NCBI GenBank assembly: GCA_029225065.1
Contig: JAQXVT010000038.1
Location: 1 to 64,000 of the forward strand
Reading direction: 5' to 3'
Length of the DNA stretch: 64,000 bases
Source of the DNA: Lachnospiraceae bacterium
GTDB lineage: Bacteria > Bacillota > Clostridia > Lachnospirales > Lachnospiraceae
A program made the position numbers and the translations under genes. Positions 37,658-56,602 of the stretch are shown one piece after another. Position 1 is the first letter of the stretch. Every line of letters begins with the position of its first letter. Under the pieces are notes generated by a model, which saw only the letters and a list, made by a program, of their open reading frames with translations, was not told where the DNA came from and ran no database searches.

Positions 37658-38470
37658 GTGAAAAAAGAATCTTCGATTCCGGCAGAGATTATAAAAAGCC
37701 GGAAAATGATTTATAAACTGGCTCAAAATGATTTTAAAACAAAATATGCCGGCTCGTATCTCGGAATTATCTGGGCGTTTATTCAGCCGGTAATTACCGT
37801 TTTGGTGTACTGGTTCGTATTTGAGGTAGGATTTCGCGGGGGATCGGATTCACTTCCGGTCCCATTTGTGCTGTATCTCGTAGCGGGTATTATTCCGTGG
37901 TTCTTCTTTCAAGATGGACTGACCGGTGGGACAAATTCGCTGCTTGAGTACAGTTATCTGGTTAAAAAGGTTGTATTCAATATCAGTGTGCTGCCGGTGG
38001 TAAAAATTCTGTCGGCGGTTTTTGTGCATCTGTTTTTTATTGTGTTTATTATATTTCTGTATTGCTGCTATGGGCATTTCCCAGATTTATATTATCTGCA
38101 GCTGCTGTACTATCTGGCAGGACTGCTGCTTCTTATTCTCGGGCTTTCGTATCTGACGAGTGCTGTGGTAGTCTTTTTCCGGGATCTGTCACAGATGATC
38201 AGTATTGCATTGCAGATCGGTATCTGGCTGACACCGATCATGTGGGTGGCAGAGGATAAGCTGATTCGTTATCCGCTTGTGTATAAGATTCTGAAGCTGA
38301 ATCCGGTTTACTATATTGTGACGGGATACCGCGATGCGTTTATTTATAAGCACTGGTTCTGGGAGCGTCCGCTGTGGACGGCGTATTTCTGGTGCTTTGT
38401 ACTTGGAGTGCTGTGGCTTGGAACGCGGGTATTTAAGAAGCTGCGCGTGCATTTCGCGGATGTTATATAA
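37658..38470 (+). CDS. ABC-2 polysaccharide export permease (Wzm/TagG-like)
   Basis: This 270-residue permease of the ABC-2 polysaccharide/teichoic acid exporter family has six hydrophobic segments. Family segments are LAQNDFKTKYAGSYLGIIWA near the N-terminus, FLYCCYGHFPD, and VVVFFRDLSQMISIALQIG with WLTPIMW. With the next gene product it would move lipid-linked glycan across the membrane. The start is a GTG with AAAGGAG eight bases upstream. It is first in the cluster, with 36 bp to the ATPase gene. Confidence 0.92.
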   Translation: MKKESSIPAEIIKSRKMIYKLAQNDFKTKYAGSYLGIIWAFIQPVITVLVYWFVFEVGFRGGSDSLPVPFVLYLVAGIIPWFFFQDGLTGGTNSLLEYSYLVKKVVFNISVLPVVKILSAVFVHLFFIVFIIFLYCCYGHFPDLYYLQLLYYLAGLLLLILGLSYLTSAVVVFFRDLSQMISIALQIGIWLTPIMWVAEDKLIRYPLVYKILKLNPVYYIVTGYRDAFIYKHWFWERPLWTAYFWCFVLGVLWLGTRVFKKLRVHFADVI

Positions 38471-38506: not shown

Positions 38507-39775
38507 ATGGAAGATGCAATTCGTGTAGAACATCTGAGCAAGATGTATAAATTATATGACAAACCGTCGGACCGCTTAAAGGAGAGTCTGGGACTCTCCA
38601 AAAAGAAACGGTATCGAGAGCATTATGCACTGCGGGACGTCAGTTTTGACATAAAAAAAGGAGAGACAGTAGGAATTATCGGCACGAACGGTGCCGGAAA
38701 GTCCACGATCCTGAAAATTATTACCGGCGTGCTCAGCCCGACGGAGGGTGAGGTGACGGTGGATGGAAGAATCTCGGCGCTGCTGGAGCTTGGTGCCGGA
38801 TTCAATATGGAATATACAGGAATTGAAAATATCTATCTGAATGGAACCATGATCGGTTTTTCAGAGGAAGAGATAGACGCCAGGCTGGATGACATCCTGG
38901 CTTTTGCTGATATAGGAGAGTTTGTCAATCAGCCGGTCAAATCATACTCGAGCGGTATGTTTGTGCGGCTGGCCTTTGCGGTGGCAATCAACATCGATCC
39001 GGAGATTCTGATTGTAGATGAGGCGCTTTCCGTCGGAGATGTCTTTTTCCAGGCAAAGTGTTACCGAAAATTTGAGGAGTTCAAGCAGGAGGGGAAGACG
39101 ATTCTGTTTGTAAGCCATGACCTTGGCAGCATCAGCAAATATTGTGACCGTGTTATCCTGCTGGATCACGGAAAGGCGGTAGGAACCGGTTCGCCGAAGG
39201 AGATGGTGGATCTGTACAAGAGGCTGCTGGTCAATCAGGGGCCGGATGCGGAGGAGAAGAAGCTTCCGGAGAGTGCGAAGAACCGGGAAAAAACAGGCTG
39301 GATTACACCGTTTGAGATGAATCCGGGCGCGTTGGAGTACGGGGACAAGCGTGCGGAGATGCTCGGTTTTCTTGTGGAAGATGCAAACGGGCTGCAGACA
39401 AATACGATTGAGAAGGGCGCGGAATTTACCTTAAAAGTGCGCGTACAGTTCCATACGAAGATTGAGGATGCGATTTTTGCGTTTACGATCAAGGATATGC
39501 GCGGCACGGAGATCACCGGCACGAATACGATGTTTGAGCGGATCACAACGCCGACGGGGGAAGACGGGGATATTTATGTCGTTTCCTACACGCAGCGAGC
39601 TGATCTGCAGGGCGGAGAGTATCTGATCTCCTTTGGGCTGACCGGCTACAGCGGCGGAGACTTTGTGGTGTACCACCGGCTGTATGATGCGTGCAGTCTT
39701 GTCGTGGTGTCATCGAAGAATACGGTGGGATTCTATGATATGAACTCGGAGATCGTAGTGCAAAAAGAGAGATAA
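38507..39775 (+). CDS. ABC exporter ATPase with Wzt-type C-terminal domain
   Basis: This 422-residue ATPase pairs with the upstream permease. The nucleotide-binding domain (1-245) has Walker A GTNGAGKST (59-67), signature YSSGM (147-151), Walker B ILIVDEA (167-173) and the switch His in FVSHD. The C-terminal part (about 275-415) is a beta-rich Wzt_C-like domain. In E. coli O9a this domain recognises a methylated or phosphorylated chain end and so licenses export of finished chains. TagH and other simple teichoic acid ATPases have different tails. The adjacent methyltransferase gene fits that logic. Confidence 0.9.
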   Translation: MEDAIRVEHLSKMYKLYDKPSDRLKESLGLSKKKRYREHYALRDVSFDIKKGETVGIIGTNGAGKSTILKIITGVLSPTEGEVTVDGRISALLELGAGFNMEYTGIENIYLNGTMIGFSEEEIDARLDDILAFADIGEFVNQPVKSYSSGMFVRLAFAVAINIDPEILIVDEALSVGDVFFQAKCYRKFEEFKQEGKTILFVSHDLGSISKYCDRVILLDHGKAVGTGSPKEMVDLYKRLLVNQGPDAEEKKLPESAKNREKTGWITPFEMNPGALEYGDKRAEMLGFLVEDANGLQTNTIEKGAEFTLKVRVQFHTKIEDAIFAFTIKDMRGTEITGTNTMFERITTPTGEDGDIYVVSYTQRADLQGGEYLISFGLTGYSGGDFVVYHRLYDACSLVVVSSKNTVGFYDMNSEIVVQKER

Positions 39776-39899
39776 ATTCCGGACAACTGAAAATGAAAAT
39801 AGAAAATTTTCAGACAAAAGAATTACAGATAAAAAATAAGATTAGTAAATATAAAGAAGTAAGGAAGAATCCGAACAGAACAGGAAGAGGAGGAAGGCG

Positions 39900-42080
39900 A
39901 TGGAACGAGAACAGATCGGGAAGGCGGTGCTGGATTACCGCTTTTATACCGGGGAAGATAAGTATACGGACGGCGATATTGAAGATGAGATGCTGGAGAT
40001 TGCAAAAACCTGTGCGCCGGAAGAATATGATCGTGTAATCACGGAGAAAAAGAGCTGGCCGATCCTCTATCATTTTTCTGCGCTGCGGGAAAATATTATC
40101 AGCTGGTTTCCAATCAAAAAGACGGACCGTGTGCTGGAGATCGGCGGAGGACCGGGAGCAATCACAGGGGCGCTGTGCCACAGTGCTGCTGAGGTGACCT
40201 GTATTGATCTCTCCAGAAAACGCTGCCTGATCAATGCATACCGCCATCAGGACTGTGAAAATCTGACGTTTTTCGTCGGAAATTTTCAGGATATTGAGCC
40301 GAAAATGGAGCAGAAATATGATCTGATCACATTGATCGGTGTGCTGGAATATGCACAGTTTTCGATTCAGGGGGAGGATCCGTTTATGGAATATCTGTCG
40401 CGGATTCGAACCCATCTGGCACCGGGCGGCCGTCTGGTGATTGCGATTGAAAACCGCATCGGACTGAAATACTGGGCGGGAGCGACGGAGGATCATACGG
40501 GCCTTTATTTTGAAGGACTTGAGGGCTATCCGACGACCGATTACGTGCGGACGTTCTCAAAGCCGGAGCTGGAAGCGCTGCTTTGGCGGGCCGGTTACGG
40601 AAATCTGGATTTTTATTATCCCTACCCGGATTATAAATTTCCGGAGCAGATCTATTCCGCGAATCGTCTGCCGAAAAAGGGCGAGCTGAACCGCAGCCGT
40701 CAGAATCTGGATCGGGAGCGGATGCAGCTGTTTTCCGAGGAGCGGGTATACGATTCTCTGCTGGAAAGCGGGCTGTTTGAACAATTTTCCAACTCCTTTT
40801 TTGTGGTCGCACGGGATAACGCAGACGCTTTTGTGGATAAATCCGAAAAAAATGAGACACGCTGTGGATACGTCAAGTATTCCAATGAGCGGAACCGGAA
40901 ATTCTGCATTCGCACGCAGATCGAGACGGCGGAGAACGGATGCCGTCGTGTGCGTAAGCTTGCTGCGTATCCGCAGGCAAAAGCGCATGTGAAGGGCTTG
41001 TATGAAAAGTACTGCGGACTGGAAGCAGATCTTGCGGATACGAAGCTGTGTGTCAATCCGTGTACGATCGAGGGGGAGAGTGCTGTCTTTCCGTTTCTCA
41101 CCGGACGCACGCTGGAGGAAGAGCTGGATGAACTGTTGGAGAAAAAGCAGTTTGAGGAGATTCTGAAAAAAATCCGGAGCTATTTTGAACTGTTTTCAGA
41201 GTCAGAGGAGACTTTCAGGATGACCGAAGGCTTCCGAAAGGTATTTGGAGAAGTATTTTTTGAGCGTCCGCAGCCGTGCAGACGGATTTCGGATGTGGAT
41301 ATGATCTTTTCCAATGCGGTCGCCGCGGGGGACGGCTATGAATTGATCGATTATGAGTGGACCTTTGATTTTCCGGTGCCGCTGCGTTTCCTGCAGTACC
41401 GCTGCCTGCATTACTATATTTTGGGAAATTCCAAACGGGACGAGCTGGTACATCAGGATATTTATGGGCATTTTGGCATTACAGAGGCGGAGCGGGAGAC
41501 CTTTGCGGAGATGGAGCATCGCTTTCAGTCTTACATTTTAGGTTCATATACACCGATATGGAAGCTGTACGACGATATTTCCGAGGGCGTGATTCCGGTG
41601 ATGCCGATGGTCGAAAAGGAACGAAAGTACGCACATGCGATGAGGAGAGTCGAAGTCTATTTTGATGACGGACGCGGATTTGGAACATGGAACTGGAAAA
41701 AATATCAGGTTCCGACCGAGGGCGAGGTATCGCTTCGCATCGAGCTGCCGCAGGGGACGAAAGCACTTCGGATCGATCCATGTGAGGCGAAATGCGTGGT
41801 GCGTGTGAAACATCTCAGCCTGAAAGGATATGCACTTTCGGTGCAGGCGAACGGGGAGCAGGCACCAAACGGAGATTATGTGTTTGATACAGAAGACCCA
41901 CAGCTTGTGATTCCACAGCTTCCCTATCAGGAGGGGGTCGTAGAACTGACTTTCCTGGCGCAGCCGCTGACGGGACTGGTGCGTGAGACTGTGCTTTCAC
42001 AAAGTGGCAGGATTCGCTGGATGGAGCAGACAAAAGCCTGGAAACTGTATCGGAAGATAAAGCCGGAGGGCAGAAAATGA
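39900..42080 (+). CDS. SAM methyltransferase with probable kinase-like domain (chain-cap candidate)
   Basis: This is a 726-residue, at least three-part protein. Residues 1-305 are a class I methyltransferase (motif I VLEIGGGPG at 78-86, CIDLS at 101-105, LIGVLEY at 145-151). Residues 330-500 read like a small APH/lipopolysaccharide-type kinase: Lys353 in VRKLA, hinge-like FPFLTGRTLEEEL (397-409), catalytic-loop pattern D467 to N472 (DVDMIFSN) and D484 in LIDYEW. Residues 575-700 are a beta-rich module. Methyltransferase plus kinase is the layout of WbdD, which caps O9a chains. The kinase reading is my inference from motif spacing. The ATG follows GAGGAGGAAGGCG, and the stop overlaps the next ATG as ATGA. 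Confidence 0.75.
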   Translation: MEREQIGKAVLDYRFYTGEDKYTDGDIEDEMLEIAKTCAPEEYDRVITEKKSWPILYHFSALRENIISWFPIKKTDRVLEIGGGPGAITGALCHSAAEVTCIDLSRKRCLINAYRHQDCENLTFFVGNFQDIEPKMEQKYDLITLIGVLEYAQFSIQGEDPFMEYLSRIRTHLAPGGRLVIAIENRIGLKYWAGATEDHTGLYFEGLEGYPTTDYVRTFSKPELEALLWRAGYGNLDFYYPYPDYKFPEQIYSANRLPKKGELNRSRQNLDRERMQLFSEERVYDSLLESGLFEQFSNSFFVVARDNADAFVDKSEKNETRCGYVKYSNERNRKFCIRTQIETAENGCRRVRKLAAYPQAKAHVKGLYEKYCGLEADLADTKLCVNPCTIEGESAVFPFLTGRTLEEELDELLEKKQFEEILKKIRSYFELFSESEETFRMTEGFRKVFGEVFFERPQPCRRISDVDMIFSNAVAAGDGYELIDYEWTFDFPVPLRFLQYRCLHYYILGNSKRDELVHQDIYGHFGITEAERETFAEMEHRFQSYILGSYTPIWKLYDDISEGVIPVMPMVEKERKYAHAMRRVEVYFDDGRGFGTWNWKKYQVPTEGEVSLRIELPQGTKALRIDPCEAKCVVRVKHLSLKGYALSVQANGEQAPNGDYVFDTEDPQLVIPQLPYQEGVVELTFLAQPLTGLVRETVLSQSGRIRWMEQTKAWKLYRKIKPEGRK

Positions 42081-44371
42081 AAGAGTTTCTGAAAAAGAAA
42101 ACAGGTCTGGCTGCAAATGTTGACCGGATCGAGAGCCGGTACGGGAATGTGATGGTGCGCGGCTGGGCGCTTGACCGAAAAACAGACGAACAGACCGTTC
42201 TTAAAGTGCAGGACGCGGATGGAAAAGAAATTCCGGCGTATGTGGAGCGCCTGGTACGCAGCGATGTCAACGAAACATTCCAGAAGCCGGAAGACTACGC
42301 GAGTGGTTTTCATATTCTGCTCGACCGGGCGGTGTTGGATACGGCGGCGGTTTGGATTGTGGTACGTGCGGAAAAAAATATGGATAGTGGAATCGCCGGG
42401 ATGGATGTGGATGGGAATTTAAAAAGAAATCCAGGAGAGACCGTTTTACAGGAAGTTTCCGAAAGGGATATCAGAGAGGGAGTACCAGAAAACAGAAGAA
42501 AAAATGCGCAGGAGGAACTGAGGCTTCGCATTCAGGTCCGTGCTTCCAACTGGTTAGAGCGAAGAATCCGGCTGCACAAAGAGAAAAAGGAAGACCTTGA
42601 GCCGGATTATGATCTCTGGATCCGAAATCAGATGGTACATGAGAAGGAAGCACGCGCGCAGCGAAAAGCGGCAGAACATTTTGCAAAAAAGCCGCTGTTC
42701 AGTGTAGTGATTCCGCTTTATAATACCCCGAAGCCATTTTTGAAGGAAATTGTGGATTCGGTGCTGCAGCAGACATATGCGAATGTGGAGCTTTGTCTGG
42801 CGGATGGCAGCAGCGATCCGTCGGTGCGGGAATTTCTGAAAAAGCATTATGCGCAGGATAAACGTCTGCGTTACCGCAAGCTGAAGGAGAACCGTGGTAT
42901 TTCAGAAAATACGAACGAGGCACTTCGGATGGCAAAGGGCGATTTTATCGTGTTTGCTGACCATGACGATGTGCTGGAGCGGAGCGCCTTTTATGAGATG
43001 GCGGCGGCTGTGAATCAGGAACCGGAAATTGATGTGATCTACACGGATGAGGATAAGGTAAACCGATCCGGTACAGCGTATTTCGGACCGCATTTTAAGC
43101 CGGATTATAACCGGGAACTGCTTTGCTGCAACAATTATATCTGTCATTTGTTTGCGGTTCGGCGCGATCTTCTGAAAAAGGTCGGACTTTTAAACCGGGA
43201 ATATGACGGCGCGCAGGATTATGATTTTGTGCTTCGCTGCTGCGAGAAGGCGAAACGGATTCATCACATTCCGAAGGTTCTGTATCACTGGAGAACGCAT
43301 CCGATGTCGACGGCCGGTAATCCGGCGAGCAAAGCGTATGCGTTTGAAGCGGGACGAAGAGCGCTGGAGGCTCATTATGAGAGAGTCGGCATTCGGGCAC
43401 AGGTGGAAAATACGGAAATGCTTGGACGGTATCGGACTCGTTTTGCGATCCAGGGGCAGCCGCTTGTATCGATTCTGATTCCGAATAAGGATCATATCAA
43501 AGATCTTACTGCCTGCCTTTCCTCGATAGTGGAGAAGACAACGTATCCGTTGTACGAGATTGTGATCATTGAGAATAACAGTGAAGAGCAGTCGACGGAG
43601 GAGTTTTATCAGGCACTGGAAGAGGGAAAAGTTTCGGAGTATGCAGAGCTTGTGAAAGCCGGGAGACTGCGCGTTGTGCGTTATCCTGGAAGCTTTAATT
43701 ATTCTGCAATTCACAACTTTGCAGTTCCGTATACGAAAGGCGAGTACCTGCTTCTTTTGAACAATGACACAGAAGTATGCTCCGGCGGCTGGATCGAGGA
43801 AATGCTTGGACTCTGTCAGCAAAAGGACATCGGAGCGGTCGGGGCGAAGCTGTATTACCCGGATGGGACGATTCAGCATGCGGGCGTTGTGATCGGGCTG
43901 TGTGGCGTGGCCAGCCATCTTTTCATCGGAGCGGCGGGCGACGCGGACGGATATGCAGGAAGACTGAAGTCGGTGCAGGATGTCAGTGCCGTGACAGCAG
44001 CCTGTATGATGACAAAACGCGCTGTCTATGAGGCGGTCGGCGGCCTGACGGAGGAGCTGGCGGTCGCTTACAACGATATCGATTACTGCATGAAGGTGCG
44101 AAAAATCGGATACCTGGTCGCATTTACGCCGTATGCCGAGCTGACCCATTTTGAGTCGAAGTCGCGCGGACTGGAGGATTCGAAAGAGAAACAGGAGCGC
44201 CTTGGCAGGGAAGCGGGAATCTTCTGCAGATGCTGGAAAAAGGAACTGGAGCAGGGAGATCCTTACTACAGTCCGAGTCTTTCACTTACGAAAACGGACT
44301 GCTCGCTCCGGAAAACGTGGGAGCTGGCAGAAAAAACGAGAGGACAGGAAACACATGAGAGCAAAATTTAA
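42077..44371 (+). CDS. Double-domain GT2 glycosyltransferase (first of three)
   Basis: This 764-residue cytoplasmic protein has an N-terminal beta-rich module (about 22-95, with VRGWALDRK, VRSDVNETF and GFHILLD) and a helical linker. GT2 domain A spans about 206-450 (FSVVIPLYNTPKPF, FADHDDVL, YTDEDK). GT2 domain B spans about 462-700 (VSILIPNKDH, LLLLNNDTEV, YNDIDYCMKV). Both keep acidic nucleotide-sugar motifs, so both may be active, adding two sugars. The ATGA overlap with the methyltransferase gene implies coupling. Two similar proteins are encoded downstream. Sugar specificity cannot be read; rhamnan-type polymers often use such enzymes. Confidence 0.88.
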   Translation: MKEFLKKKTGLAANVDRIESRYGNVMVRGWALDRKTDEQTVLKVQDADGKEIPAYVERLVRSDVNETFQKPEDYASGFHILLDRAVLDTAAVWIVVRAEKNMDSGIAGMDVDGNLKRNPGETVLQEVSERDIREGVPENRRKNAQEELRLRIQVRASNWLERRIRLHKEKKEDLEPDYDLWIRNQMVHEKEARAQRKAAEHFAKKPLFSVVIPLYNTPKPFLKEIVDSVLQQTYANVELCLADGSSDPSVREFLKKHYAQDKRLRYRKLKENRGISENTNEALRMAKGDFIVFADHDDVLERSAFYEMAAAVNQEPEIDVIYTDEDKVNRSGTAYFGPHFKPDYNRELLCCNNYICHLFAVRRDLLKKVGLLNREYDGAQDYDFVLRCCEKAKRIHHIPKVLYHWRTHPMSTAGNPASKAYAFEAGRRALEAHYERVGIRAQVENTEMLGRYRTRFAIQGQPLVSILIPNKDHIKDLTACLSSIVEKTTYPLYEIVIIENNSEEQSTEEFYQALEEGKVSEYAELVKAGRLRVVRYPGSFNYSAIHNFAVPYTKGEYLLLLNNDTEVCSGGWIEEMLGLCQQKDIGAVGAKLYYPDGTIQHAGVVIGLCGVASHLFIGAAGDADGYAGRLKSVQDVSAVTAACMMTKRAVYEAVGGLTEELAVAYNDIDYCMKVRKIGYLVAFTPYAELTHFESKSRGLEDSKEKQERLGREAGIFCRCWKKELEQGDPYYSPSLSLTKTDCSLRKTWELAEKTRGQETHESKI

Positions 44372-46805
44372 CCGGGAACGCGTTCGCTTTGATACGAAGC
44401 AGCCGGATACGCTGGTGATTCAGGGATGGTTTGAAGAAGATAAGGGCGATCAGGCGGTGTTTGAGGCATTTCTGGATGGAAAAAAGACAGAGCTGACGGT
44501 TCAGACACAGAGCGGTGTGGAGGTCACAAAAAAATATCTTCGCTATAAGACAAATGTGGAACGGGAATATTTTCTGCGTATTCCGCTTGGAAGCAATGCC
44601 GGAAATCTCAAGGTTTTCTGGAAAAACGGAGAAACGCGTGTTTCCGTCTATCATGCATCTGCAGCATCGCTGGCACGCCTGAAACAGCGTCTGGAATCCT
44701 GGATAGAGCAGCTGCGCGCGCTGCCGGACGGACGGTACCAGCTGCGCGGCTGGTATATGGGCTGTGAGCATGCTCAGATTGCTGTGCTGGACGGGAGCGG
44801 GACACCGATCCCTGTGCAGCGCGAGGAAATGAGCAGAATGGACATTCTCGGAGAATTTCCGGAGGCGGTGCTTTCGGAGACACACGGATTTGAACTGACG
44901 TTTGAAGCGCAAAAGGAGAACCATCTGCGTCTGGCCTTAAAGGGAAACGGAAAGAAAGCGCTGTACCTCATCAATTGCAAAAAGATGCTTTCCGGAAAGG
45001 AAGATCTGGCGACAATCTGCAAAAAGAGCGTGCTCTATCTGAAACGGAAAGGATTCAAGCAGTTTACGCGGCGGGTGTCTGATGTGCTGCTCGGCAGTGA
45101 TTCGATCAGCTACGAGCGTTGGAGAAGAAAGTACGGAACAAAACAATCCGAGCTTGCCCGTCAGCGTGAAGAGAAGTTTGCCTATGCGCCGAAGATCAGT
45201 ATTGTGATTCCGCTCTACCGCACGCCGGAACATTTCCTGCGAGAGGTGATCCGCTCGGTGGAGGAGCAGACGTATCCAAACTGGGAGCTGGTGCTTTCCG
45301 ACGGCAGCGGGGAAGACTCACCGCTTGACGGATTTCTGGATGAGCTTGAGCATGCTTACACGAAAAAAACAGAGAAGCTGAAAATTGTGCGGAACAACCG
45401 TCAGCTTCGCATTGCAGAAAACACTAATGCAGCGCTTGCGGCGGCAACAGGAGATTTCATTGCTTTTGGGGATCACGATGATCTGTTTGCACCGGATGCG
45501 CTGTACGAGTGCGTGAAGCTTTTACAGGAAAAGCCGGAGACGAACCTGATCTATACGGATGAGGATAAGGTCGACGGAAAAGGAAAGAAGTATTTTCAGC
45601 CGCATTTTAAATCCGATTACAACCCGGATCTCTTATGCAGCATGAACTATTTCTGTCATCTCGTCGTCGTAAAGCGGGAGCTGCTTCATGCGGCGGGACC
45701 TTTGGACCCGGCGTACGATGGTGCGCAGGATTATGATTTTGTACTGCGCTGCACGGAGCACACGAAGCCGGAGCAGATCGCACATATCCCGAAGATTCTG
45801 TATCACTGGCGGACCCATCAGGACTCGACGGCGGAAAATCCGGAGAGCAAGCGGTATGCGTTTACGGCGGGCTGCCGGGCGGTTCAGGCGCACTATGACA
45901 GACTTGGGATCCGGGCAACTGTGCATGAAGGTGCCTATCCGGGACTCTATGAGACCGATTATGAGATTATCGGGGAACCGTTGATCTCGATTCTGATCCC
46001 GAACAAGGACCATCTGGCGGATCTGACGAAGTGCATCGACTCGATCGAGAGGCTGTCGGATTACAAAAATTATGAGTATATCATTATTGAAAATAACAGC
46101 ACGGAAGCAGAGACGTTCGAGGGTTATAAAAAACTTGAGGCAGAAAATCCGAAGGTTCATGTCGTTTATTATAAGGGAGATTTCAATTATTCCGCGATCA
46201 ATAATTTCGGCGCAGGGCATGCGAATGGAGATTATTTCCTGCTGCTCAACAACGATACGGAAATGATCCGAAAAGATGATCTGCGGCAGCTGCTCGGCGT
46301 CTGCCAGCGGGAGGATGTCGGCATTGTTGGTGCGCGGCTCTACTATGAGGACGATACGATCCAGCATGCAGGTGTGGTGCTCGGTTTTGGCGGAATCGCA
46401 GGCCATGCGTTTATTGGGCAGAGCAGAGGGGACAACGGTTACTTTTCCCAGATTATCTGCATGCGTGATTACAGCGCGGTGACAGCGGCCTGCATGATGG
46501 TGAAGGCTTCGGTGTACCGCGAGGTCGGCGGGCTTTCCGAACATCTGAAGGTGGCGTTCAACGATATTGATTTCTGTATGAAGGTGCGTGAAAAAGGCTA
46601 TCTTGTTGTCTACAATCCGCGCGCAGAGCTGTATCATTATGAGTCAAAATCACGCGGTCTGGAAAACACACAGGAAAAAATCGAGCGGTTTAACGGGGAG
46701 GTTGCGCAGTTCCTTTCAAGATGGGGCGAGCAGGTGAAAGCGGGCGACCCGTACTACAACCCGAATCTGTCTCTGGACAAGGCGGACTTCTCGCTGAAGC
46801 TGTAA
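44355..46805 (+). CDS. Double-domain GT2 glycosyltransferase (second of three)
   Basis: This 816-residue protein starts at ATG 44355 after AGGACAGGAAACAC; the 17-bp overlap with the previous gene supports coupling. A longer in-frame opening to 44151 lies wholly inside that gene and is rejected. Two beta-rich modules come first (about 15-85, VIQGWFEED; and 125-190, LRGWYMGCE ending HGFELTFE). GT2 domain A follows (about 280-520, ISIVIPLYRTPEHF, FGDHDDLF, YTDEDK). GT2 domain B covers 542-770 (ISILIPNKDH, LLLLNNDTE, FNDIDFCMKV). It is clearly paralogous to its neighbours. Confidence 0.88.
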   Translation: MRAKFNRERVRFDTKQPDTLVIQGWFEEDKGDQAVFEAFLDGKKTELTVQTQSGVEVTKKYLRYKTNVEREYFLRIPLGSNAGNLKVFWKNGETRVSVYHASAASLARLKQRLESWIEQLRALPDGRYQLRGWYMGCEHAQIAVLDGSGTPIPVQREEMSRMDILGEFPEAVLSETHGFELTFEAQKENHLRLALKGNGKKALYLINCKKMLSGKEDLATICKKSVLYLKRKGFKQFTRRVSDVLLGSDSISYERWRRKYGTKQSELARQREEKFAYAPKISIVIPLYRTPEHFLREVIRSVEEQTYPNWELVLSDGSGEDSPLDGFLDELEHAYTKKTEKLKIVRNNRQLRIAENTNAALAAATGDFIAFGDHDDLFAPDALYECVKLLQEKPETNLIYTDEDKVDGKGKKYFQPHFKSDYNPDLLCSMNYFCHLVVVKRELLHAAGPLDPAYDGAQDYDFVLRCTEHTKPEQIAHIPKILYHWRTHQDSTAENPESKRYAFTAGCRAVQAHYDRLGIRATVHEGAYPGLYETDYEIIGEPLISILIPNKDHLADLTKCIDSIERLSDYKNYEYIIIENNSTEAETFEGYKKLEAENPKVHVVYYKGDFNYSAINNFGAGHANGDYFLLLNNDTEMIRKDDLRQLLGVCQREDVGIVGARLYYEDDTIQHAGVVLGFGGIAGHAFIGQSRGDNGYFSQIICMRDYSAVTAACMMVKASVYREVGGLSEHLKVAFNDIDFCMKVREKGYLVVYNPRAELYHYESKSRGLENTQEKIERFNGEVAQFLSRWGEQVKAGDPYYNPNLSLDKADFSLKL

Positions 46806-46817
46806 AGAGGATGATTT

Positions 46818-48536
46818 ATGAAGAAAGTGACAGCTGCGTGGCAGCAGATCAATCGAAAAATTGACGGACTGTGGATCATAGAGGAACATCGGACGGTCTT
46901 TGGGCAGAAAGAAGAATGCGGTTTCGATGAAAAAGAAATTGAGGATACAGCAAGTGAGCAGGAAAAGAAAGGCAGACAAAAGGAAAAAGGGCATGCGAAG
47001 CCACGAAAAATGGTATCTCACAGGAAGTTTGCCCCGGCTCACCCGGCTGATCTTTTCTTTGTCCTTCTCATTGGTGCTTTTTTATTTTATCTGTCCTGGA
47101 TTCTTCCATTCAATGAGGCTCCGGATGAAAAGATGCGCTATCTTGTGCCGACTTACATCTATCGCCACGGCACATTGCCTGCCGGCTGGAATGAGGAAGT
47201 GCTGAATAAAACATGGGGGATTTCTTACGCGTTTCATCCGATCCTGCCCTATATCCTCGGCGGATATCTGATGCGGCTTGTGGGGATTTTTAACAGTTCG
47301 GAGCACGCGCTTTTGATGGCGGCGCGATTTATCAATGTCCTTTTCGGCATGGGATTTTACTGGTATGTGCTGAAAATTTCAAGCAGACTGTTTCAGAATA
47401 ATATTTTCCGTATTTATTTTGTGGCGCTTCTGGCACTGCTTCCGCAGCTTTTGTACCTGTTTGTCTATGTCAATACGGACGGAACGGCGGTCTTCTCGTC
47501 TGCGATGCTGATCTATGGCTGGCTTCTTGGCCTGGAGCGGAAATGGGACCGGAAAAGCTGTACACATCTGGCGGTTGGTGTGAGTATCTGTGCCATGTCG
47601 TATTTCAACGCGTACGGATTTGCACTGTTTTCCGTCGTACTGTTCGTCGGGTCGCTTATTGTACTTTATAGAAAAAAAGGTGCAAAGATCTGTACGGGCG
47701 TAATTTTAAAACGCGGCCTGTACATTACCGCTGTCGTTTTTCTGCTGTGCGGCTGGTGGTTCATCCGCTGTGCTGTTTTGTACGATGGAGATTTTCTCGG
47801 ACTGTATGCTCCGGCAAAATACGGAGAGCTGTATGCACAGGAGGAATTTAAGCCGTCAGTGAAAAAGTCCATAAAGGAACAGGGAATATCAATTGAGGAG
47901 ATGCTGAAGTCCGAGGACGAGGGCGGAATGGACTGGGTTCGTACGACGTACCGCAGTACAATCGGATATTTTGGATACCTGAAGTATCCGCTGGGCCTGG
48001 ATATTTACGAGATCCACAAGCGGCTGGTACTGTTCGGCGGGCTTGGCTGTGTGCTGTACCTGCTTCTGACTGCGGCAAAACTGGCGTGGAATTTTGCAGT
48101 CCGCTGGACAAAAAAAGAGAAAATTCCGATATCTTTTACGATTTCCGGTATAAAATTGCACCCTGTGAACTTCTTTCTGTTGCAGATTTCGTTTGGTTGC
48201 TGTATCATAATACCGATATTGCTGTCGATTGTGTATTCTTATACAGACGATTTTCAGCCGCAGGGGCGTTATATTATGCCGCTTATTATTCCGCTTGCAT
48301 ATTTTACGGCGGCCGGGACAAAGCGCATGATGACACTGTTTTTCAGAAAATGGATCGGATATCTTCTGATGATCCCGCTTCTGTATGCGGCATTGCACGT
48401 ATTTTTAGCAGCATTTGTCTCCGTTTATATCCCGACGTTTTGTGAATCATTTAGCTGGATGGCAGATGTACGGTTTGAATGGTTTTCAAATCAGAGACTG
48501 GTGGTATTGTTTTTGCATCTGTTTATTCCGGGATAA
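46818..48536 (+). CDS. DUF2142-type polytopic membrane protein (GT-C-like)
   Basis: This 572-residue protein has an 80-residue charged N-terminus and then ten or more membrane segments starting DLFFVLLIGAFLFYLSWILP. The loop FNEAPDEKMRY after the first segment (acidic residues next to the membrane) and DGTAVFSSAML resemble DUF2142 and other GT-C fold glycosyltransferases that use polyprenyl-phosphate sugars outside the membrane. A role in adding side-chain sugars to the polymer is an inference. The ATG follows AAAGAGGATGATTT, 13 bp after the preceding stop, so it belongs to the same operon. Confidence 0.8.
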   Translation: MKKVTAAWQQINRKIDGLWIIEEHRTVFGQKEECGFDEKEIEDTASEQEKKGRQKEKGHAKPRKMVSHRKFAPAHPADLFFVLLIGAFLFYLSWILPFNEAPDEKMRYLVPTYIYRHGTLPAGWNEEVLNKTWGISYAFHPILPYILGGYLMRLVGIFNSSEHALLMAARFINVLFGMGFYWYVLKISSRLFQNNIFRIYFVALLALLPQLLYLFVYVNTDGTAVFSSAMLIYGWLLGLERKWDRKSCTHLAVGVSICAMSYFNAYGFALFSVVLFVGSLIVLYRKKGAKICTGVILKRGLYITAVVFLLCGWWFIRCAVLYDGDFLGLYAPAKYGELYAQEEFKPSVKKSIKEQGISIEEMLKSEDEGGMDWVRTTYRSTIGYFGYLKYPLGLDIYEIHKRLVLFGGLGCVLYLLLTAAKLAWNFAVRWTKKEKIPISFTISGIKLHPVNFFLLQISFGCCIIIPILLSIVYSYTDDFQPQGRYIMPLIIPLAYFTAAGTKRMMTLFFRKWIGYLLMIPLLYAALHVFLAAFVSVYIPTFCESFSWMADVRFEWFSNQRLVVLFLHLFIPG

Positions 48537-48595
48537 GGACGGGTGCAGGAAAGAGAAGAAAAACACAGAAGCATCAAAAGGAGGAGTGGAAAGTT

Positions 48596-49729
48596 ATGAT
48601 AGATTTTAACAGAGCCCCGTACGTGGGGAAGGAAATAGAGTATATGCAGCAGGCAATTTCAGGCGCAAAACTGTGCGGCGACGGTCCGTTCACCAAAAAA
48701 TGTTCTGCATTTATGAAGGAGCATTTTCATTCAAAAAATGTACTGCTGACTACTTCGTGTACGCATGCACTCGAGATGGCGGCGTTTCTGTGTGATCTGC
48801 AGCCAGGAGACGAGGTTATCATGCCGGCCTACACCTTTGTGTCAACAGCGGATGCGTTTGTACTGCAGGGAGCAAAGATTGTGTTTGTCGATGTGCATCC
48901 GGAGACGATGAATATTGATGAGACGAAGATTGAGGCGGCAATCACAGAGCGGACGAAGGTGATTGTGCCGGTGCATTATGCAGGTGTGGCATGTGAGATG
49001 GACACAATCATGGATATTGCGAGACGCCATAATCTGAAAGTTGTGGAGGATGCAGCACAGGGCGTGAATGCATGGTACAAGGGAAGAGCACTTGGAACGA
49101 TCGGCGATTTCGGCTGCTACAGCTTCCATGAAACAAAGAATTATACAATGGGAGAGGGCGGAGCGCTCTTATTCCAGGATGATTCTTATCTGGAGCGCGC
49201 AGAGATCTTAAGAGAAAAAGGAACAAACCGCAGCAAGTTTTTCCGCGGTCAGATCGACAAATATACCTGGGTGGATTATGGTTCTTCCTATCTTCCGAGC
49301 GATTTAAACGCTGCATATCTGTATGCGCAGCTTGAAAAGATGGATGAGATCAACGAAAAACGTCTGGAAATTTTTAACTATTATCATGAGCATCTTGCAC
49401 CGCTTGAGGAAAAGGGACTGATCGAGCGTCCGTATCTGCCGGAGGGCACCGAGCACAACGGACATATGTACTACATAAAGGTGAAAGACCTTGAGACGAG
49501 AACGAACCTGATCCGTTGGATGAAAGAAGAAAAAGGTGTACTGTGTGTCTTCCATTATATTCCGCTGCACACAGCGCCGGCAGGACAGAAATTCGGAAGA
49601 TTCGTCGGAGAGGATGTCTATACTACGAAAGAAAGTGAGCGTCTTATGCGTCTGCCGATGTATTACAGCCTGAGCATGGATGACGTAAAATACATCACAG
49701 ACAGTCTGCTGGAGTATCAGGATTATTGA
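48596..49729 (+). CDS. wecE: dTDP-4-amino-4,6-dideoxygalactose transaminase (WecE)
   Basis: This 377-residue PLP aminotransferase of the DegT/DnrJ/EryC1 group is strikingly like enterobacterial WecE along its length: GKLCGDGPFTKK-like opening (AKLCGDGPFTKKC), PGDEVIMPAYTFVSTADAFV, VIVPVHYAGVACEMDTIM and VEDAAQGVNAWYKGRALG. The PLP lysine lies in FHETKNYTMGEGG. WecE makes dTDP-fucosamine (Fuc4N) from dTDP-4-keto-6-deoxyglucose and glutamate, so the glycan may contain an amino-deoxy sugar. The start at 48596 is chosen for AAAGGAGGAGTGGAAAGTT before it. Intact PLP site and normal length. Confidence 0.92.
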   Translation: MIDFNRAPYVGKEIEYMQQAISGAKLCGDGPFTKKCSAFMKEHFHSKNVLLTTSCTHALEMAAFLCDLQPGDEVIMPAYTFVSTADAFVLQGAKIVFVDVHPETMNIDETKIEAAITERTKVIVPVHYAGVACEMDTIMDIARRHNLKVVEDAAQGVNAWYKGRALGTIGDFGCYSFHETKNYTMGEGGALLFQDDSYLERAEILREKGTNRSKFFRGQIDKYTWVDYGSSYLPSDLNAAYLYAQLEKMDEINEKRLEIFNYYHEHLAPLEEKGLIERPYLPEGTEHNGHMYYIKVKDLETRTNLIRWMKEEKGVLCVFHYIPLHTAPAGQKFGRFVGEDVYTTKESERLMRLPMYYSLSMDDVKYITDSLLEYQDY

Positions 49730-49731
49730 TT

Positions 49732-51546
49732 ATGGCAAATAAGGTAACTGGTTTTGTAAAAAAACTGACACCGTACAACATTCAGAAGGGAATTTGTTAT
49801 CTGAAACATTTCGGACTGAAGGAATTTCTGGTGCGATTAAGCGACCGGCTGGAGCCAGAAGAGGTACCGTACGGACCATGGTTTGAAGCACATCGGGCCG
49901 GGCAGGAGCAGCTTGAGCGGCAGCGAAGGAGAAAATGGGAGCGGCCGGTAAAAATCAGCATCGCTGTACCGCTTTACCGCACACCGGAGGTGTTTCTGCG
50001 TGAGATGATCGAGTCAGTGAGGGCACAGACGTATCCATACTGGGAGCTTTGCCTTGCGGACGGCAGTCCGGAGGATGAGAAGCTAAAGCAGATTCTTTCA
50101 CAGTATGCGAAGGAAGATGACCGCATTCTGGTTCGGATTCTGGAAAAAAACCGGGGGATTGCGGACAATACGAATGCTGCGCTTGAGATGGCGACCGGAG
50201 AATACATCGGGCTGCTTGATCACGATGATTTTCTGGAACCGGATGCGCTCTTTCGTATTGCATCGGCGATCGAAGACAATGCATGGCCGGATCTTCTGTA
50301 TACGGACGAGGACAAATCGAACGAGGATGGAAGCGAGTATTTTCAGCCGAATTTCAAACCGGATTACAACCCGGATCTTCTGCGCAGCAACAATTATATC
50401 TGTCACTTTCTGGTCGCTGAGCGCGATTTGATTGCGCGTGCGGGCGGGTTTGACTGTGGATATGACGGTGCGCAGGATTATGATTTTATTCTGCGCTGTA
50501 CCGAAAAAGCGCATAAGATTGCTCATGTTCCGAGGGTGCTGTATCACTGGCGGACACATCCAAAGTCGACTGCGGACAATCCGATCAGCAAGCAGTATGC
50601 GTATGATGCGGGAAAACGGGCGATTGAAGCACATCTTACGCGCGTGGGAGAGACTGGCTGCACGGTAGAGCGGAAAAAGGATTTCGGTTTCTACCGCGTG
50701 AAATATCCGGTACAGGGTCAGCCGTTTGTATCGATCATCATTCCGAACAAGGATGAAAAAGAGACACTTCAGAAGTGCCTTGAGTCGATCCGTGTAAAGA
50801 CGACATATGAAAATTATGAGATCATCATCGTGGAAAATAACAGCAAAACAGAGGAAATTTTTGCTTACTACAAAGAAATAGATGGACGAAACGGAGTTCA
50901 TGTTGTATATTGGGACAGAGAATTTAATTATTCCGCAATCAACAATTTCGGCGTGAGCAAAGCTTCCGGAGAGTATATCGTTTTTTTAAACAACGATGTG
51001 GAGATTATCAGCGAAAACTGGCTAGAGGAGCTGCTTGGACACTGCCAGAGAGAAAAGACAGGGATTGTCGGCGCAAGACTTTACTATCCGGATGATACCA
51101 TTCAGCATGCCGGGATCGTGATCGGAATCGGTGGAGTAGCGGGCAGTGTATTTGTCGGACAGAAACGCGCTCATACCGGATATATGCATCGAGAAGCGCT
51201 GCAGCAGGATTTGAGTGCTGTAACGGCGGCGTGTATGATGATTAAGCGCAGCGTATTTGAAGCGGTTGGTGGTTTTGAGGAAAGACTGGCAGTTGCATTT
51301 AATGACGTTGATCTTTGTCTGAAGGTGCGGGAGCTTGGCTATCTTGTGGTATATGATCCGTACGCGGAGCTTTATCATTATGAGTCAAAGACGCGCGGGG
51401 CGGAGGATACACCGGAAAAAGTGCGCCGTTTCCAGAGAGAGATCGAATATATGCGGAGTCGGTGGACTGAGATCCTGAAAAACGGGGATCCTTATTATAA
51501 CCGGAATCTTTCCCTGAAAAAATGGAATTATTCTCTGAAAGGTTGA
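49732..51546 (+). CDS. Double-domain GT2 glycosyltransferase (third of three)
   Basis: This 604-residue paralogue of the two upstream enzymes lacks the large beta module. After about 70 residues comes GT2 domain A (about 75-315; ISIAVPLYRTPEVF, LLDHDDFL, YTDEDK), then domain B (about 330-560; VSIIIPNKDEKE, FLNNDVEI, FNDVDLCLKV). Between them sits the same YDGAQDYDFILRC to HWRTHPKSTADNP block found in both relatives. The ATG at 49732 begins 3 bp after the wecE stop. The ribosome binding site is weak, so translation is probably coupled to wecE. Confidence 0.88.
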   Translation: MANKVTGFVKKLTPYNIQKGICYLKHFGLKEFLVRLSDRLEPEEVPYGPWFEAHRAGQEQLERQRRRKWERPVKISIAVPLYRTPEVFLREMIESVRAQTYPYWELCLADGSPEDEKLKQILSQYAKEDDRILVRILEKNRGIADNTNAALEMATGEYIGLLDHDDFLEPDALFRIASAIEDNAWPDLLYTDEDKSNEDGSEYFQPNFKPDYNPDLLRSNNYICHFLVAERDLIARAGGFDCGYDGAQDYDFILRCTEKAHKIAHVPRVLYHWRTHPKSTADNPISKQYAYDAGKRAIEAHLTRVGETGCTVERKKDFGFYRVKYPVQGQPFVSIIIPNKDEKETLQKCLESIRVKTTYENYEIIIVENNSKTEEIFAYYKEIDGRNGVHVVYWDREFNYSAINNFGVSKASGEYIVFLNNDVEIISENWLEELLGHCQREKTGIVGARLYYPDDTIQHAGIVIGIGGVAGSVFVGQKRAHTGYMHREALQQDLSAVTAACMMIKRSVFEAVGGFEERLAVAFNDVDLCLKVRELGYLVVYDPYAELYHYESKTRGAEDTPEKVRRFQREIEYMRSRWTEILKNGDPYYNRNLSLKKWNYSLKG

Positions 51547-51552
51547 GCGGAT

Positions 51553-52512
51553 ATGCAAATAGCAACAGTAGTGATTCCGAACCTGAACGGAAAAAAATAT
51601 CTGAAGGACTGTCTGAATGCGCTTCGTGCGCAGAGCAGGCAGGATTTTTCGGTTATTTTGATTGACAACGGTTCGACGGACGGCAGTGCGGAATTTGTCA
51701 GGGAAACGTATCCGGAGGTGACCGTGAAGCGCTTTGAGGAAAACCGCGGATTTTGCGGGGCTGTCAACGAAGGAATCCGGATGACGAAAACGAAGTACGT
51801 AGTGCTTCTGAATAATGATACGATTGTCTATCCGGCATTTTTGGAAGAACTTGTAAGTGCAATGGAACACGAAACGAATTGTTTTGCGGGGAGCTCGCGC
51901 ATGGTCCAGATGCAGGACTCATCAAAAATGGATAACTGCGGCGATTTTTACTGCGCGCTTGGCTGGGCATTTACACCGGCAAAGGGCAAAAGTGCCGTTT
52001 TGTATGATCGCGGCCGTGAGGTATTTTCGGCCTGTGCGGGTGCGGCAATCTATCTGCGGCGGGTGTTTGATGAAATAGGTTTGTTTGATGAAGCACATTT
52101 TGCGTATCTGGAGGATGTGGATGTCTGCTGGCGGGCCAGAATCGCCGGGTATCGGAATCTCTATGTGCCGGATGCAATTGTGCGTCATGTCGGAAGTGCG
52201 ACAAGCGGTTCCGTCTACAATGAGTTCAAGGTTCGTCATTCTTCGCGCAACAGTATTTACCTGATTTACAAAAATATGCCGCTCTTACAGATTGTCCTGA
52301 ATCTGCCGTTTTTGATTGTGGGATTTGCGGTGAAATTTTTGTTTTTTGTATCGAAAGGTCTGGGCGGTACGTACGCGAGAGGGCTGATTCGCGGTGTGAA
52401 GATGTGCAGCCGGGACAGGAAAGTGCGGTTTCATTGGAAAAATCTGCGAAATTACGCAAAAATACAGCTGGAGCTGTGGCTGAATCTGATCCGTAGGGTG
52501 AAAGATTTCTGA
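51553..52512 (+). CDS. Single-domain GT2 glycosyltransferase (WbbL/rhamnosyltransferase-like)
   Basis: This 319-residue GT2 enzyme opens with IATVVIPNLNGKKYLKDCL, has the acidic motif LLNNDTIVYP and later YLEDVDVCWRARIAGYR, and ends in an amphipathic and hydrophobic tail (about 235-265) that may hold it at the membrane. This type includes rhamnosyltransferases that add early linkage sugars to undecaprenyl-PP-sugar. A role just after the initiating enzyme encoded next to it is likely. It begins 6 bp after the previous stop, and the sequence GTTGAGCGGAT gives only a modest ribosome binding site. Confidence 0.87.
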   Translation: MQIATVVIPNLNGKKYLKDCLNALRAQSRQDFSVILIDNGSTDGSAEFVRETYPEVTVKRFEENRGFCGAVNEGIRMTKTKYVVLLNNDTIVYPAFLEELVSAMEHETNCFAGSSRMVQMQDSSKMDNCGDFYCALGWAFTPAKGKSAVLYDRGREVFSACAGAAIYLRRVFDEIGLFDEAHFAYLEDVDVCWRARIAGYRNLYVPDAIVRHVGSATSGSVYNEFKVRHSSRNSIYLIYKNMPLLQIVLNLPFLIVGFAVKFLFFVSKGLGGTYARGLIRGVKMCSRDRKVRFHWKNLRNYAKIQLELWLNLIRRVKDF

Positions 52513-52556
52513 CGTAGTGAGAGACTGCGAGAAGTCCGCAGCGAGAGGTGAGTCGA

Positions 52557-53957
52557 TTGATAAAAGATAATCAGAAACATTTTAACAGGCTGCAGGTGGC
52601 ACTGGATGCCTGCGTGATTATTGTATCCTATCTTATTTCATGGTATGCGATGCTGCGCAGCGTCGAGGGGAAAGAGATCGGTGTTCTGCCGCCGGAATTT
52701 TATATGATGGTACTTGTCATTCTGGTACCATTTTTTTTGCTGCTCAATTATGCGTGCGGTCTGTATACACCAAAACGGGTGCAGGGACGGCGCCTGGAAG
52801 GCAGCAATATTGTAAAGGCGAATGTGATCGGTGGGCTCGCCATGATGGCAGCCTACTTTATGCTGCGTCTGCCGGACGTGTCACGTCTGCAGATTGGATT
52901 GTTTCTGGCTCTGAACGTGGTACTGACGTTTGTGGAACGGAATATTGTACGCATGGTTCTGCGAAATATGCGCCGGATGGGATTGAATCTGAAGCATATT
53001 TTACTGGTGGGTTACAGCCGTGCGGCCGAGGAGTATATTGACCGTATCACTCAGAATCCGCAGTGGGGCTACAATGTGATGGGGATTCTTGATGACAGTA
53101 TGCCGAAGGGAACCACATACAAAAATATTGAAGTGATTGGCAGAACGGATACTTTAAATGAACTTCTGGAAGACAATCATCCGGATGAGATCGCGATCAC
53201 GCTTGGTCTGCCGGAGTATTACAAGCTGGAACGGATTGTGGCGATGTGCGAAAAAGAAGGGGTGCACACAAAATTTATTCCGGATTACAGCAAGATTATT
53301 CCAACGCAACCTTATACGGAGGATTTGCTTGGTCTGGCGGTCATCAATATTCGTCATGTACCGCTTTCCAATACGTTCAATATGATGATGAAGCGGGCGA
53401 TGGATATTGCCGGTTCGATCATCTGTATTATTTTATTTTCACCGGTAATGCTTGTGACGGCACTGCTTGTAAAGGTAACGTCAAAGGGGCCTCTGATTTT
53501 TACGCAGGAGCGCGTGGGACTGCATAACCGGCCGTTTCGGATGTATAAATTCCGATCGATGGAGGTACAGGCGAAGAGCGAGGAAAAGAAAGGCTGGACG
53601 GTCAAAAATGATCCGCGTGTCACGCCGGTGGGACGCTTTATCCGAATGACAAGCATCGATGAACTGCCGCAGCTTTTTAATGTTTTAAAAGGAGATATGA
53701 GCCTGGTTGGTCCGAGACCGGAGCGGCCGCAGTTTGTGGAAAAATTTCGGGAAGAGATTCCGCGCTATATGGTCAAGCATCAGGTACGGCCGGGGATGAC
53801 CGGATGGGCGCAGATAAATGGTTACAGGGGAAATACTTCGATTCGCAAAAGGATCGAGTACGATCTTTACTATATTGAAAACTGGACCTTTGGACTGGAT
53901 ATTAAAATTTTGTTTTTAACGGTGTTTAAGGGATTTGTAAATAAAAATGCGTATTAA
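52557..53957 (+). CDS. Polyprenyl-phosphate sugar phosphotransferase (WcaJ/EpsE-like)
   Basis: This 466-residue initiating enzyme has four N-terminal membrane segments (about 15-120), a central nucleotide-binding-like domain (ILLVGYSRAAEEYIDRI) and a C-terminal bacterial sugar transferase domain. That domain starts at KRAMDIAGSIICIILFSPV and has FTQERVGL, YKFRSM, SIDELPQLFNVLKGDMSLVG, PRPERP and GMTGWAQINGYRG. It transfers a sugar-1-phosphate, typically glucose or galactose, to undecaprenyl phosphate. I favour TTG 52557, because GAGAGGTGAG lies just before it, over GTG 52548. It makes the lipid primer for this cluster. Confidence 0.9.
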   Translation: MIKDNQKHFNRLQVALDACVIIVSYLISWYAMLRSVEGKEIGVLPPEFYMMVLVILVPFFLLLNYACGLYTPKRVQGRRLEGSNIVKANVIGGLAMMAAYFMLRLPDVSRLQIGLFLALNVVLTFVERNIVRMVLRNMRRMGLNLKHILLVGYSRAAEEYIDRITQNPQWGYNVMGILDDSMPKGTTYKNIEVIGRTDTLNELLEDNHPDEIAITLGLPEYYKLERIVAMCEKEGVHTKFIPDYSKIIPTQPYTEDLLGLAVINIRHVPLSNTFNMMMKRAMDIAGSIICIILFSPVMLVTALLVKVTSKGPLIFTQERVGLHNRPFRMYKFRSMEVQAKSEEKKGWTVKNDPRVTPVGRFIRMTSIDELPQLFNVLKGDMSLVGPRPERPQFVEKFREEIPRYMVKHQVRPGMTGWAQINGYRGNTSIRKRIEYDLYYIENWTFGLDIKILFLTVFKGFVNKNAY

Positions 53958-56513: not shown

Positions 56514-56602
56514 GCACAGGCGTGTGAAATCATGCTGCTGTGATGTGGATAACTTCCGGGCCGGAAGGCTATACGGTGGATAGAAGAAGGGAAAAGAGCA
56601 GA

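What the first reader, a model, noticed from the sequence alone, without database searches (positions are those of the whole stretch)
38507..42080. Possible WbdD/Wzt-like cap-and-export module in a Gram-positive polysaccharide cluster
Seen: an ABC exporter ATPase with a long beta-rich C-terminal extension is followed by a 726-residue protein. That protein combines an intact class I methyltransferase motif (VLEIGGGPG, 78-86) with a segment that has kinase landmarks in the right order and spacing: Lys353, hinge FPFLTGRTLEEEL, D467/N472 and D484. Known: in E. coli O9a, WbdD (methyltransferase plus kinase) caps the chain and the C-terminal domain of Wzt recognises the cap for export. Inference: this cluster ends its chains by a similar phosphate/methyl cap that licenses export before LCP attachment to the wall. 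I know of no description of this in gut Clostridia.
Basis: partly seen in the sequence, partly recalled or inferred. Interest (0 to 1): 0.75.

Follow-up and report, generated by a model that had tools for sequence, protein, structure and literature searches.

The report
Gram-positive methyltransferase-kinase glycan cap enzyme
A gut-type bacterium carries a two-headed enzyme (methyltransferase plus sugar kinase) beside a matching polysaccharide exporter, so it probably finishes its surface sugar chains with a methyl-phosphate cap that acts as an exit permit, a trick worked out so far for cell-surface sugars of Gram-negative bacteria.

The parts
37658..38470 (+). Wzm-type ABC-2 permease (GTG start), transmembrane half of the exporter
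   Evidence: PF01061 E 1e-11; NF050109 galactan export permease below cut-off
38507..39775 (+). Wzt-type exporter ATPase, 422 aa
   Evidence: ABC_tran E 7.7e-25 and Wzt_C E 2.9e-40; best PDB match 8dku 'ABC transporter' over residues 5-401, E 2.9e-79 (that it is an Aquifex O-antigen exporter is recalled)
39335..39742 (+). Wzt_C carbohydrate-binding domain of the ATPase (proposed cap reader)
   Evidence: PF14524
39900..42080 (+). methyltransferase-kinase-beta-domain protein, 726 aa (proposed chain terminator)
39963..40808 (+). class I SAM methyltransferase domain (residues 22-303), intact E80/G82/G84/G86
40866..41570 (+). APH-type kinase domain (residues 323-557): K353, D467, N472, D484
41649..41912 (+). 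beta-rich domain (residues 584-671), possible carbohydrate-binding module
   Evidence: strands, block-mean pLDDT 78-89 over 581-690; home-made HMM; fold not searched on its own
42077..44371 (+). tandem GT2-GT2 glycosyltransferase, start overlaps the stop of the terminator (ATGA)
   Evidence: PF00535, two stretches; 40% identity over 577 aa to the C-terminal GT2-GT2 of the P. asturiensis ORF6-like protein; overlap seen in sequence
44151..46805 (+). second tandem GT2-GT2 protein (true start probably further in)
   Evidence: PF00535; 41% over 573 aa to the same P. asturiensis protein
46818..48536 (+). 572-aa hydrophobic protein without a family match
   Evidence: no Pfam match at E <= 0.01 and no NCBIfam match at E <= 0.001; only a sub-threshold MgtC hit, E 0.038
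48479..49729 (+). dTDP-4-amino-4,6-dideoxygalactose transaminase (WecE/RffA type), precursor sugar
   Evidence: NF008687 E 4.7e-189, above cut-off
49726..51546 (+). third tandem GT2-GT2 protein
   Evidence: PF00535; 44% over 538 aa to the P. asturiensis protein
51553..52512 (+). single GT2 glycosyltransferase
   Evidence: PF00535 E 4.4e-31
52548..53957 (+). polyprenyl-phosphate sugar-1-P transferase (initiating enzyme)
   Evidence: PF02397 E 2.2e-74
54036..55322 (+). LytR-CpsA-Psr family protein (proposed wall attachment)
   Evidence: PF03816 E 1.6e-34

Best explanation
The 726-aa protein is a bifunctional chain terminator of the K. pneumoniae O7 ORF6-N type. GT2 enzymes of the cluster build a lipid-linked polymer in the cytoplasm. 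The APH-type kinase puts a phosphate from ATP on the non-reducing end sugar, which stops elongation, and the methyltransferase then methylates that phosphate. The Wzt_C domain of the neighbouring ATPase recognises the finished end, so Wzm/Wzt exports only capped chains, which an LCP enzyme then joins to the cell wall. Shown here: domain content, kinase fold (prediction), conserved active sites, co-occurrence of terminator and Wzt_C, sequence link to an ORF6-like protein. Inferred: the methyl-phosphate product, the acceptor, recognition by Wzt_C, and LCP attachment.
Against: No enzyme assay or glycan structure. The ORF6-O7 sequence itself was not available; the link runs through the P. asturiensis protein, whose orthology to ORF6 is my inference from published residue numbers. 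That protein was not reported by the clean family kinase HMM; only profile-profile comparison and an iterated HMM that had taken in other distant proteins found it. The Citrobacter relative matched weakly (E 9.5e-4 and 0.004; hhalign 61%, E 8.1e-5) and has Glu where the window has D484. Foldseek overlays are loose (TM-scores 0.25-0.52, rmsd 7.7-21.7 in the 50 rows). The beta-domain HMM did not match P. asturiensis. The coiled-coil described for terminators is not seen. No invariant Glu lies in the predicted alpha-C helix; a conserved His (H363) does. The strong/weak Wzt_C split was chosen after seeing the list. In 25 of 97 relatives the SAM motif is altered (8 with none visible), so methylation may not be universal in the family.
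Confidence: 0.72

Rival explanations
1. The enzyme phosphorylates (and methylates) a sugar inside the repeat unit or a side chain, a decoration along the whole polymer and not an end cap.
For: No coiled-coil ruler seen in this protein, so nothing obvious restricts it to chain ends; acceptor unknown.
Against: Tight pairing with one Wzt_C class; the C-terminal module of Wzt is described as reading chain ends (PMC11231755 and PMC11127046 passages); the characterised ORF6-N is a terminator.
Confidence: 0.13
2. A methyl-only cap as in E. coli O8 or Geobacillus WsaE; the kinase-like domain serves to bind the acceptor or is a scaffold.
For: Gram-positive precedent for a 2-O-methyl cap with Wzm/Wzt (PMC2943079 passages); the SAM motif is intact here.
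Against: Kinase residues intact in 92 of 98 loci and D467/N472/D484/E486 almost invariant, the opposite of what a dead kinase would show; it is the SAM motif that varies.
Confidence: 0.06
3. A direct homologue of E. coli O9a WbdD.
For: Same order (methyltransferase then kinase), Wzt_C exporter.
Against: Closest folds are APH-type small-molecule kinases; no WbdD chain among the 50 rows shown and none listed by sequence; no coiled-coil seen. Absence from a list does not exclude it.
Confidence: 0.04
4. The kinase acts on a small molecule (a free sugar or amino alcohol, as LicA does) and merely shares an operon with the exporter.
For: APH fold is shared by many small-molecule kinases including LicA.
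Against: Fusion or direct adjacency with the methyltransferase, beta domain and GT2 modules across the family.
Confidence: 0.05

Closest known systems
Klebsiella pneumoniae O7 terminator ORF6-N (methyltransferase-kinase; PMC11231755)
   Same: Methyltransferase with equivalent SAM-binding residues, APH/AmiN-like kinase with equivalent catalytic Asp, a beta-rich domain after the kinase, GT2-GT2 modules next in line, Wzm/Wzt partner.
   Different: GT2-GT2 on a separate overlapping gene; no coiled-coil seen between; Gram-positive host; beta domain not shown to be homologous; product unproven.
E. coli O9a WbdD with Wzt
   Same: Methyltransferase plus kinase in one protein beside a Wzt with C-terminal recognition domain; cap-then-export logic.
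   Different: WbdD's kinase is eukaryotic-kinase-like and fused to a coiled-coil (PMC3482155 passages); here an APH-type kinase without a visible ruler.
Geobacillus stearothermophilus WsaE (S-layer glycan)
   Same: Gram-positive; N-terminal methyltransferase beside wzm-wzt and GT modules; proposed methyl cap read by Wzt (PMC2943079 passages).
   Different: No kinase mentioned in the passages seen; methyl goes on a sugar hydroxyl (2-O-methyl rhamnose); glycan goes to a protein.
ABC transporter of PDB 8dku/7k2t (Aquifex O-antigen exporter, recalled)
   Same: Aligns over nearly the whole ATPase including the C-terminal domain (E 2.9e-79).
   Different: Cap type not compared here.

Membership tests
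K. pneumoniae O7 ORF6-type methyltransferase-kinase terminators | SAM methyltransferase with Y28, Y66, G91, G93, E112, Y158 equivalents | tested here: met
   Y22, Y57, G82, G84, D103, Y151 via P. asturiensis numbering; five identical, one E to D
K. pneumoniae O7 ORF6-type methyltransferase-kinase terminators | APH/AmiN-like kinase domain with catalytic Asp (D441) | tested here: met
   (predicted fold); D467 aligned to P. asturiensis D443; hhalign 97.3%, E 2.7e-11
K. pneumoniae O7 ORF6-type methyltransferase-kinase terminators | Ig-like CBM after the kinase | tested here: inconclusive
   beta-rich domain 583-689 in the model, but no fold search of it alone; HMM does not match P. asturiensis; no PDB sequence match
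K. pneumoniae O7 ORF6-type methyltransferase-kinase terminators | coiled-coil molecular ruler between terminator and polymerase | tested here: not met
   55 residues follow the beta domain's HMM match; 0 heptad-like windows there by a home-made score that does flag the Citrobacter and P. asturiensis tails; no published predictor was run
K. pneumoniae O7 ORF6-type methyltransferase-kinase terminators | GT2-GT2 polymerase modules on the same protein or in its cluster | tested here: met
   adjacent overlapping gene, 40% identity over 577 aa to the P. asturiensis C-terminal modules
K. pneumoniae O7 ORF6-type methyltransferase-kinase terminators | ATP-dependent phosphorylation and methylation of a glycan end | not testable with these tools
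   needs protein and acceptor
WbdD (O9a) terminators | eukaryotic-kinase-like kinase homologous to WbdD | tested here: inconclusive
   no WbdD chain in the 50 rows nor listed by sequence; absence from a list excludes nothing
WbdD (O9a) terminators | C-terminal coiled-coil domain | tested here: not met
   same home-made score and tail length as above
Wzt exporters with C-terminal cap-binding domain | Wzt_C domain on the ATPase | tested here: met
   PF14524 138 bits against cut-off 30.4
Wzt exporters with C-terminal cap-binding domain | binds the terminal modification | not testable with these tools
   needs binding assay

The most novel reading that the evidence does not exclude
Bacteria of this family license export of their wall polysaccharides by an end phosphate. 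The kinase is the core, the methyltransferase is dispensable and has decayed more than once, and a whole architectural class (the window's) terminates chains without the coiled-coil ruler, so chain length must be set in another way (for example by the stoichiometry of terminator, polymerase and exporter).
Probability: 0.3. Interest if true: 0.72.

Novelty: new variant of a known kind. Interest (0 to 1): 0.6.

Why it matters
It extends kinase-based chain termination from Gram-negative O antigens to Gram-positive surface polysaccharides, and it is common: 79 of 150 sampled genomes of the window's family, its own included, carry the enzyme. It gives an annotation to a large conserved domain that Pfam and PDB sequence searches did not find. 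It supplies natural experiments on two questions of the pathway: whether methylation of the cap phosphate is needed for export (relatives with kinase but no visible SAM site), and whether a coiled-coil ruler is needed for termination (the ruler-less class). It predicts an end group that ordinary sugar analysis of such glycans could miss.

Tried and rejected
Whole-protein AF2 model: mean pLDDT 68, kinase part poor; VIA-align showed only methyltransferase matches; superseded by the kinase-only model. PDB sequence profiles with A1, A3, A4: no kinase or CBM relative. Viral contigs: no relative. Citrobacter cluster in E. coli genomes by megablast: no match. The clean kinase HMM did not report P. 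asturiensis, and the beta-domain HMM reported none of the real outside proteins (only shuffled ones at E 0.79 or worse).

Literature: listings showed no paper on a methyltransferase-kinase terminator in Lachnospiraceae or Clostridia, and a 2025 review of gut surface polysaccharides (PMC12413058) has no occurrence of Wzt, methylat or ABC transporter in its main text. Supplements were not readable, so the ortholog list of PMC11231755 Fig. S9 is known only from its text (alphaproteobacteria, gammaproteobacteria, cyanobacteria). No paper was read whole: one section part of PMC11231755, passages of PMC3482155, PMC11231755, PMC2943079, PMC11127046 and PMC12413058.

In one search the line for the translation from 44353 was out of frame and is not used. 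Coiled-coil statements rest on a heuristic of my own with an arbitrary cut-off. A first count treated every altered SAM motif as lost; a stricter scan shows 8 of 97 with no GxGxG or GxxxG in the first 130 residues, the rest changed but perhaps still binding SAM (L065, L080, L087 and L090 keep a GxGxG). Alignment rows include fragments; four genomes (G018, G064, G080, G129) gave two loci each. Trees: 90 of 98 loci; L025, L028, L039, L076, L077, L091, L092, L094 left out as truncated, doubled or far; 49 of 87 inner branches are weak; quick method only.

Full report
Observation. The ATPase has an ABC domain and a Wzt_C domain (PF14524 E 2.9e-40, residues 277-412). Its best PDB match, 8dku, aligns over residues 5-401. 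The 726-aa protein has methyltransferase matches (PF08242 E 2.8e-13) and no Pfam match above cut-off elsewhere.

Which known system. In print, K. pneumoniae O7 ORF6 has a methyltransferase, an unannotated 223-aa domain, an Ig-like fold taken as a CBM, a coiled-coil and two GT2 modules. The unannotated domain weakly resembled AmiN; the enzyme phosphorylated position 3 of the terminal rhamnose and partly methylated the phosphate, and D441A abolished phosphorylation (PMC11231755, section 11 part 1 and passages). A tblastn of plasmids with the window protein gave 5 records. Two are informative, Citrobacter braakii and Pseudomonas asturiensis, both with permease, ATPase and this enzyme in that order. 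The P. asturiensis protein has all six SAM residues listed for ORF6-O7 at the same numbers and D443 for D441, so I take it as an ORF6 orthologue. Its post-methyltransferase part matches the family kinase profile by hhalign (97.3%, E 2.7e-11, 197 columns; reversed control 0.4%). A plain HMM search with that family did not report it, but did report three other proteins of the phylum (L092 E 3.7e-10, L091 1.9e-9, L094 1.6e-8; best of 350 shuffled controls 0.33). The window's next gene, overlapping by ATGA, is 40% identical over 577 aa to the GT2-GT2 end of the P. asturiensis protein. So the window holds what looks like an ORF6-type terminator split from its polymerase modules.

Distribution and pairing. 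Of 150 genomes of the window's family (taken as Lachnospiraceae from the titles of L031-L037; the others are unnamed), 94 have any match at E <= 1e-3, some of them methyltransferases only; 79 have one at about 1e-11 or better. Over 299 genomes of the phylum with profile A1, 10 match at E <= 1e-15, 4 of them in the same family including the window's own. Wzt_C was searched in the same 150. Of 79 strong Wzt_C places (E < 5e-34), 65 have an enzyme match starting within 1.2 kb downstream and 74 have one within 6 kb on either side; of 33 weaker places none does. By genome: 77 both, 1 Wzt_C only, 2 enzyme only, 70 neither (Fisher 2.7e-39). The threshold was set after seeing the list and the genomes share ancestry, so the p-value is only indicative; the raw pairing is plain. 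In the 7 named relatives (L031-L037) permease, Wzt_C ATPase, methyltransferase-kinase and GT2-GT2 stand in the same order in all 7, one (L032) with the gene broken into two frames.

Architecture. Methyltransferase and kinase are one ORF in some relatives and neighbouring ORFs in others, with or without GT2 fusion. With a home-made heptad score, coiled-coil-like stretches follow the kinase in 12 of 14 separate kinase-beta-domain proteins, 13 of 14 separate kinase-GT2 fusions and 7 of 9 full methyltransferase-kinase-GT2 fusions. They do so in only 3 of 35 proteins of the window's class (fused methyltransferase-kinase-beta domain, median tail 44 aa); the remaining classes are 9 of 15, 2 of 4, 3 of 7 and 0 of 1 (99 ORFs in all). 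The published work calls the coiled-coil ruler characteristic of the terminators. The window's class seems to lack it.

Change in the methyltransferase. The aligned SAM motif is intact in 72 of 98 loci, altered in 18 and not aligned in 8; one of the last (L076) is cut by a contig end, leaving 25 of 97. These are of different weight. In 8 rows the motif reads Q-G-D-G, which may still bind SAM, and four loci keep a GxGxG. Eight of 97 have neither GxGxG nor GxxxG in their first 130 residues (L060, L067, L071, L072, L074, L083, L088, L099); as a control, GxGxG is found in the first 160 residues of 71 of the 72 intact loci. All 26 altered loci, L076 included, keep the four kinase residues. On a quick tree of 90 kinase domains the 16 rows altered other than QGDG/EGDG need 13 changes, at least 5 forced by supported branches; the eight without a visible motif need 7, at least 3 forced. 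So phosphorylation looks like the conserved core and methylation an accessory. The window's own copy is intact.

Mechanism proposed: polymer made on a lipid by GT2 enzymes after initiation by the sugar transferase at 52548, end phosphorylated and then methylated by the 726-aa protein, end read by Wzt_C, export by Wzm/Wzt, attachment by the LCP protein at 54036. Domain content and pairing are shown; chemistry, acceptor and order are inferred from ORF6-O7 and WbdD. Precursors: the cluster has a WecE-type transaminase, and the genome has rmlB/rmlD matches elsewhere, so rhamnose and Fuc4N-type sugars are possible.

Verdict. Methyl capping in Gram-positives was already proposed for WsaE. A kinase-bearing terminator in Bacillota, the ruler-less class, and repeated loss of the SAM site were not found in the papers searched.

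Noticed in passing
L060, L067, L071, L072, L074, L083, L088, L099 (relatives): Methyltransferase half has no visible glycine-rich SAM motif while the kinase residues stay intact; could be phosphate-only caps.
   Followed up: partly
window 48479-49729: WecE/RffA-type dTDP-4-amino-4,6-dideoxygalactose transaminase (NF008687 E 4.7e-189) in a Gram-positive polysaccharide cluster; suggests a Fuc4N-type sugar.
   Followed up: no
window 46818-48536: 572-aa hydrophobic protein with no Pfam match at E <= 0.01 and no NCBIfam match at E <= 0.001; possibly a membrane glycosyltransferase of the GT-C kind.
   Followed up: no
window 38507-39775 and relatives: Wzt_C of the family falls into a strong-scoring class that goes with the methyltransferase-kinase and a weak-scoring class (33 places) that does not; the weak class may read other caps.
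   Followed up: partly
L028 (G086): Two methyltransferase-kinase ORFs in tandem, one with Q in place of the catalytic Asp; possible active/inactive pair.
   Followed up: no
window 56540-58348: ClpX-like AAA protein with a long unmatched stretch between its zinc finger (57-93) and the ClpX match (from about 214).
   Followed up: no
kinase domain, window residue 363: A conserved His, not a Glu, sits in the predicted alpha-C helix (88 of 95 aligned rows).
   Followed up: no
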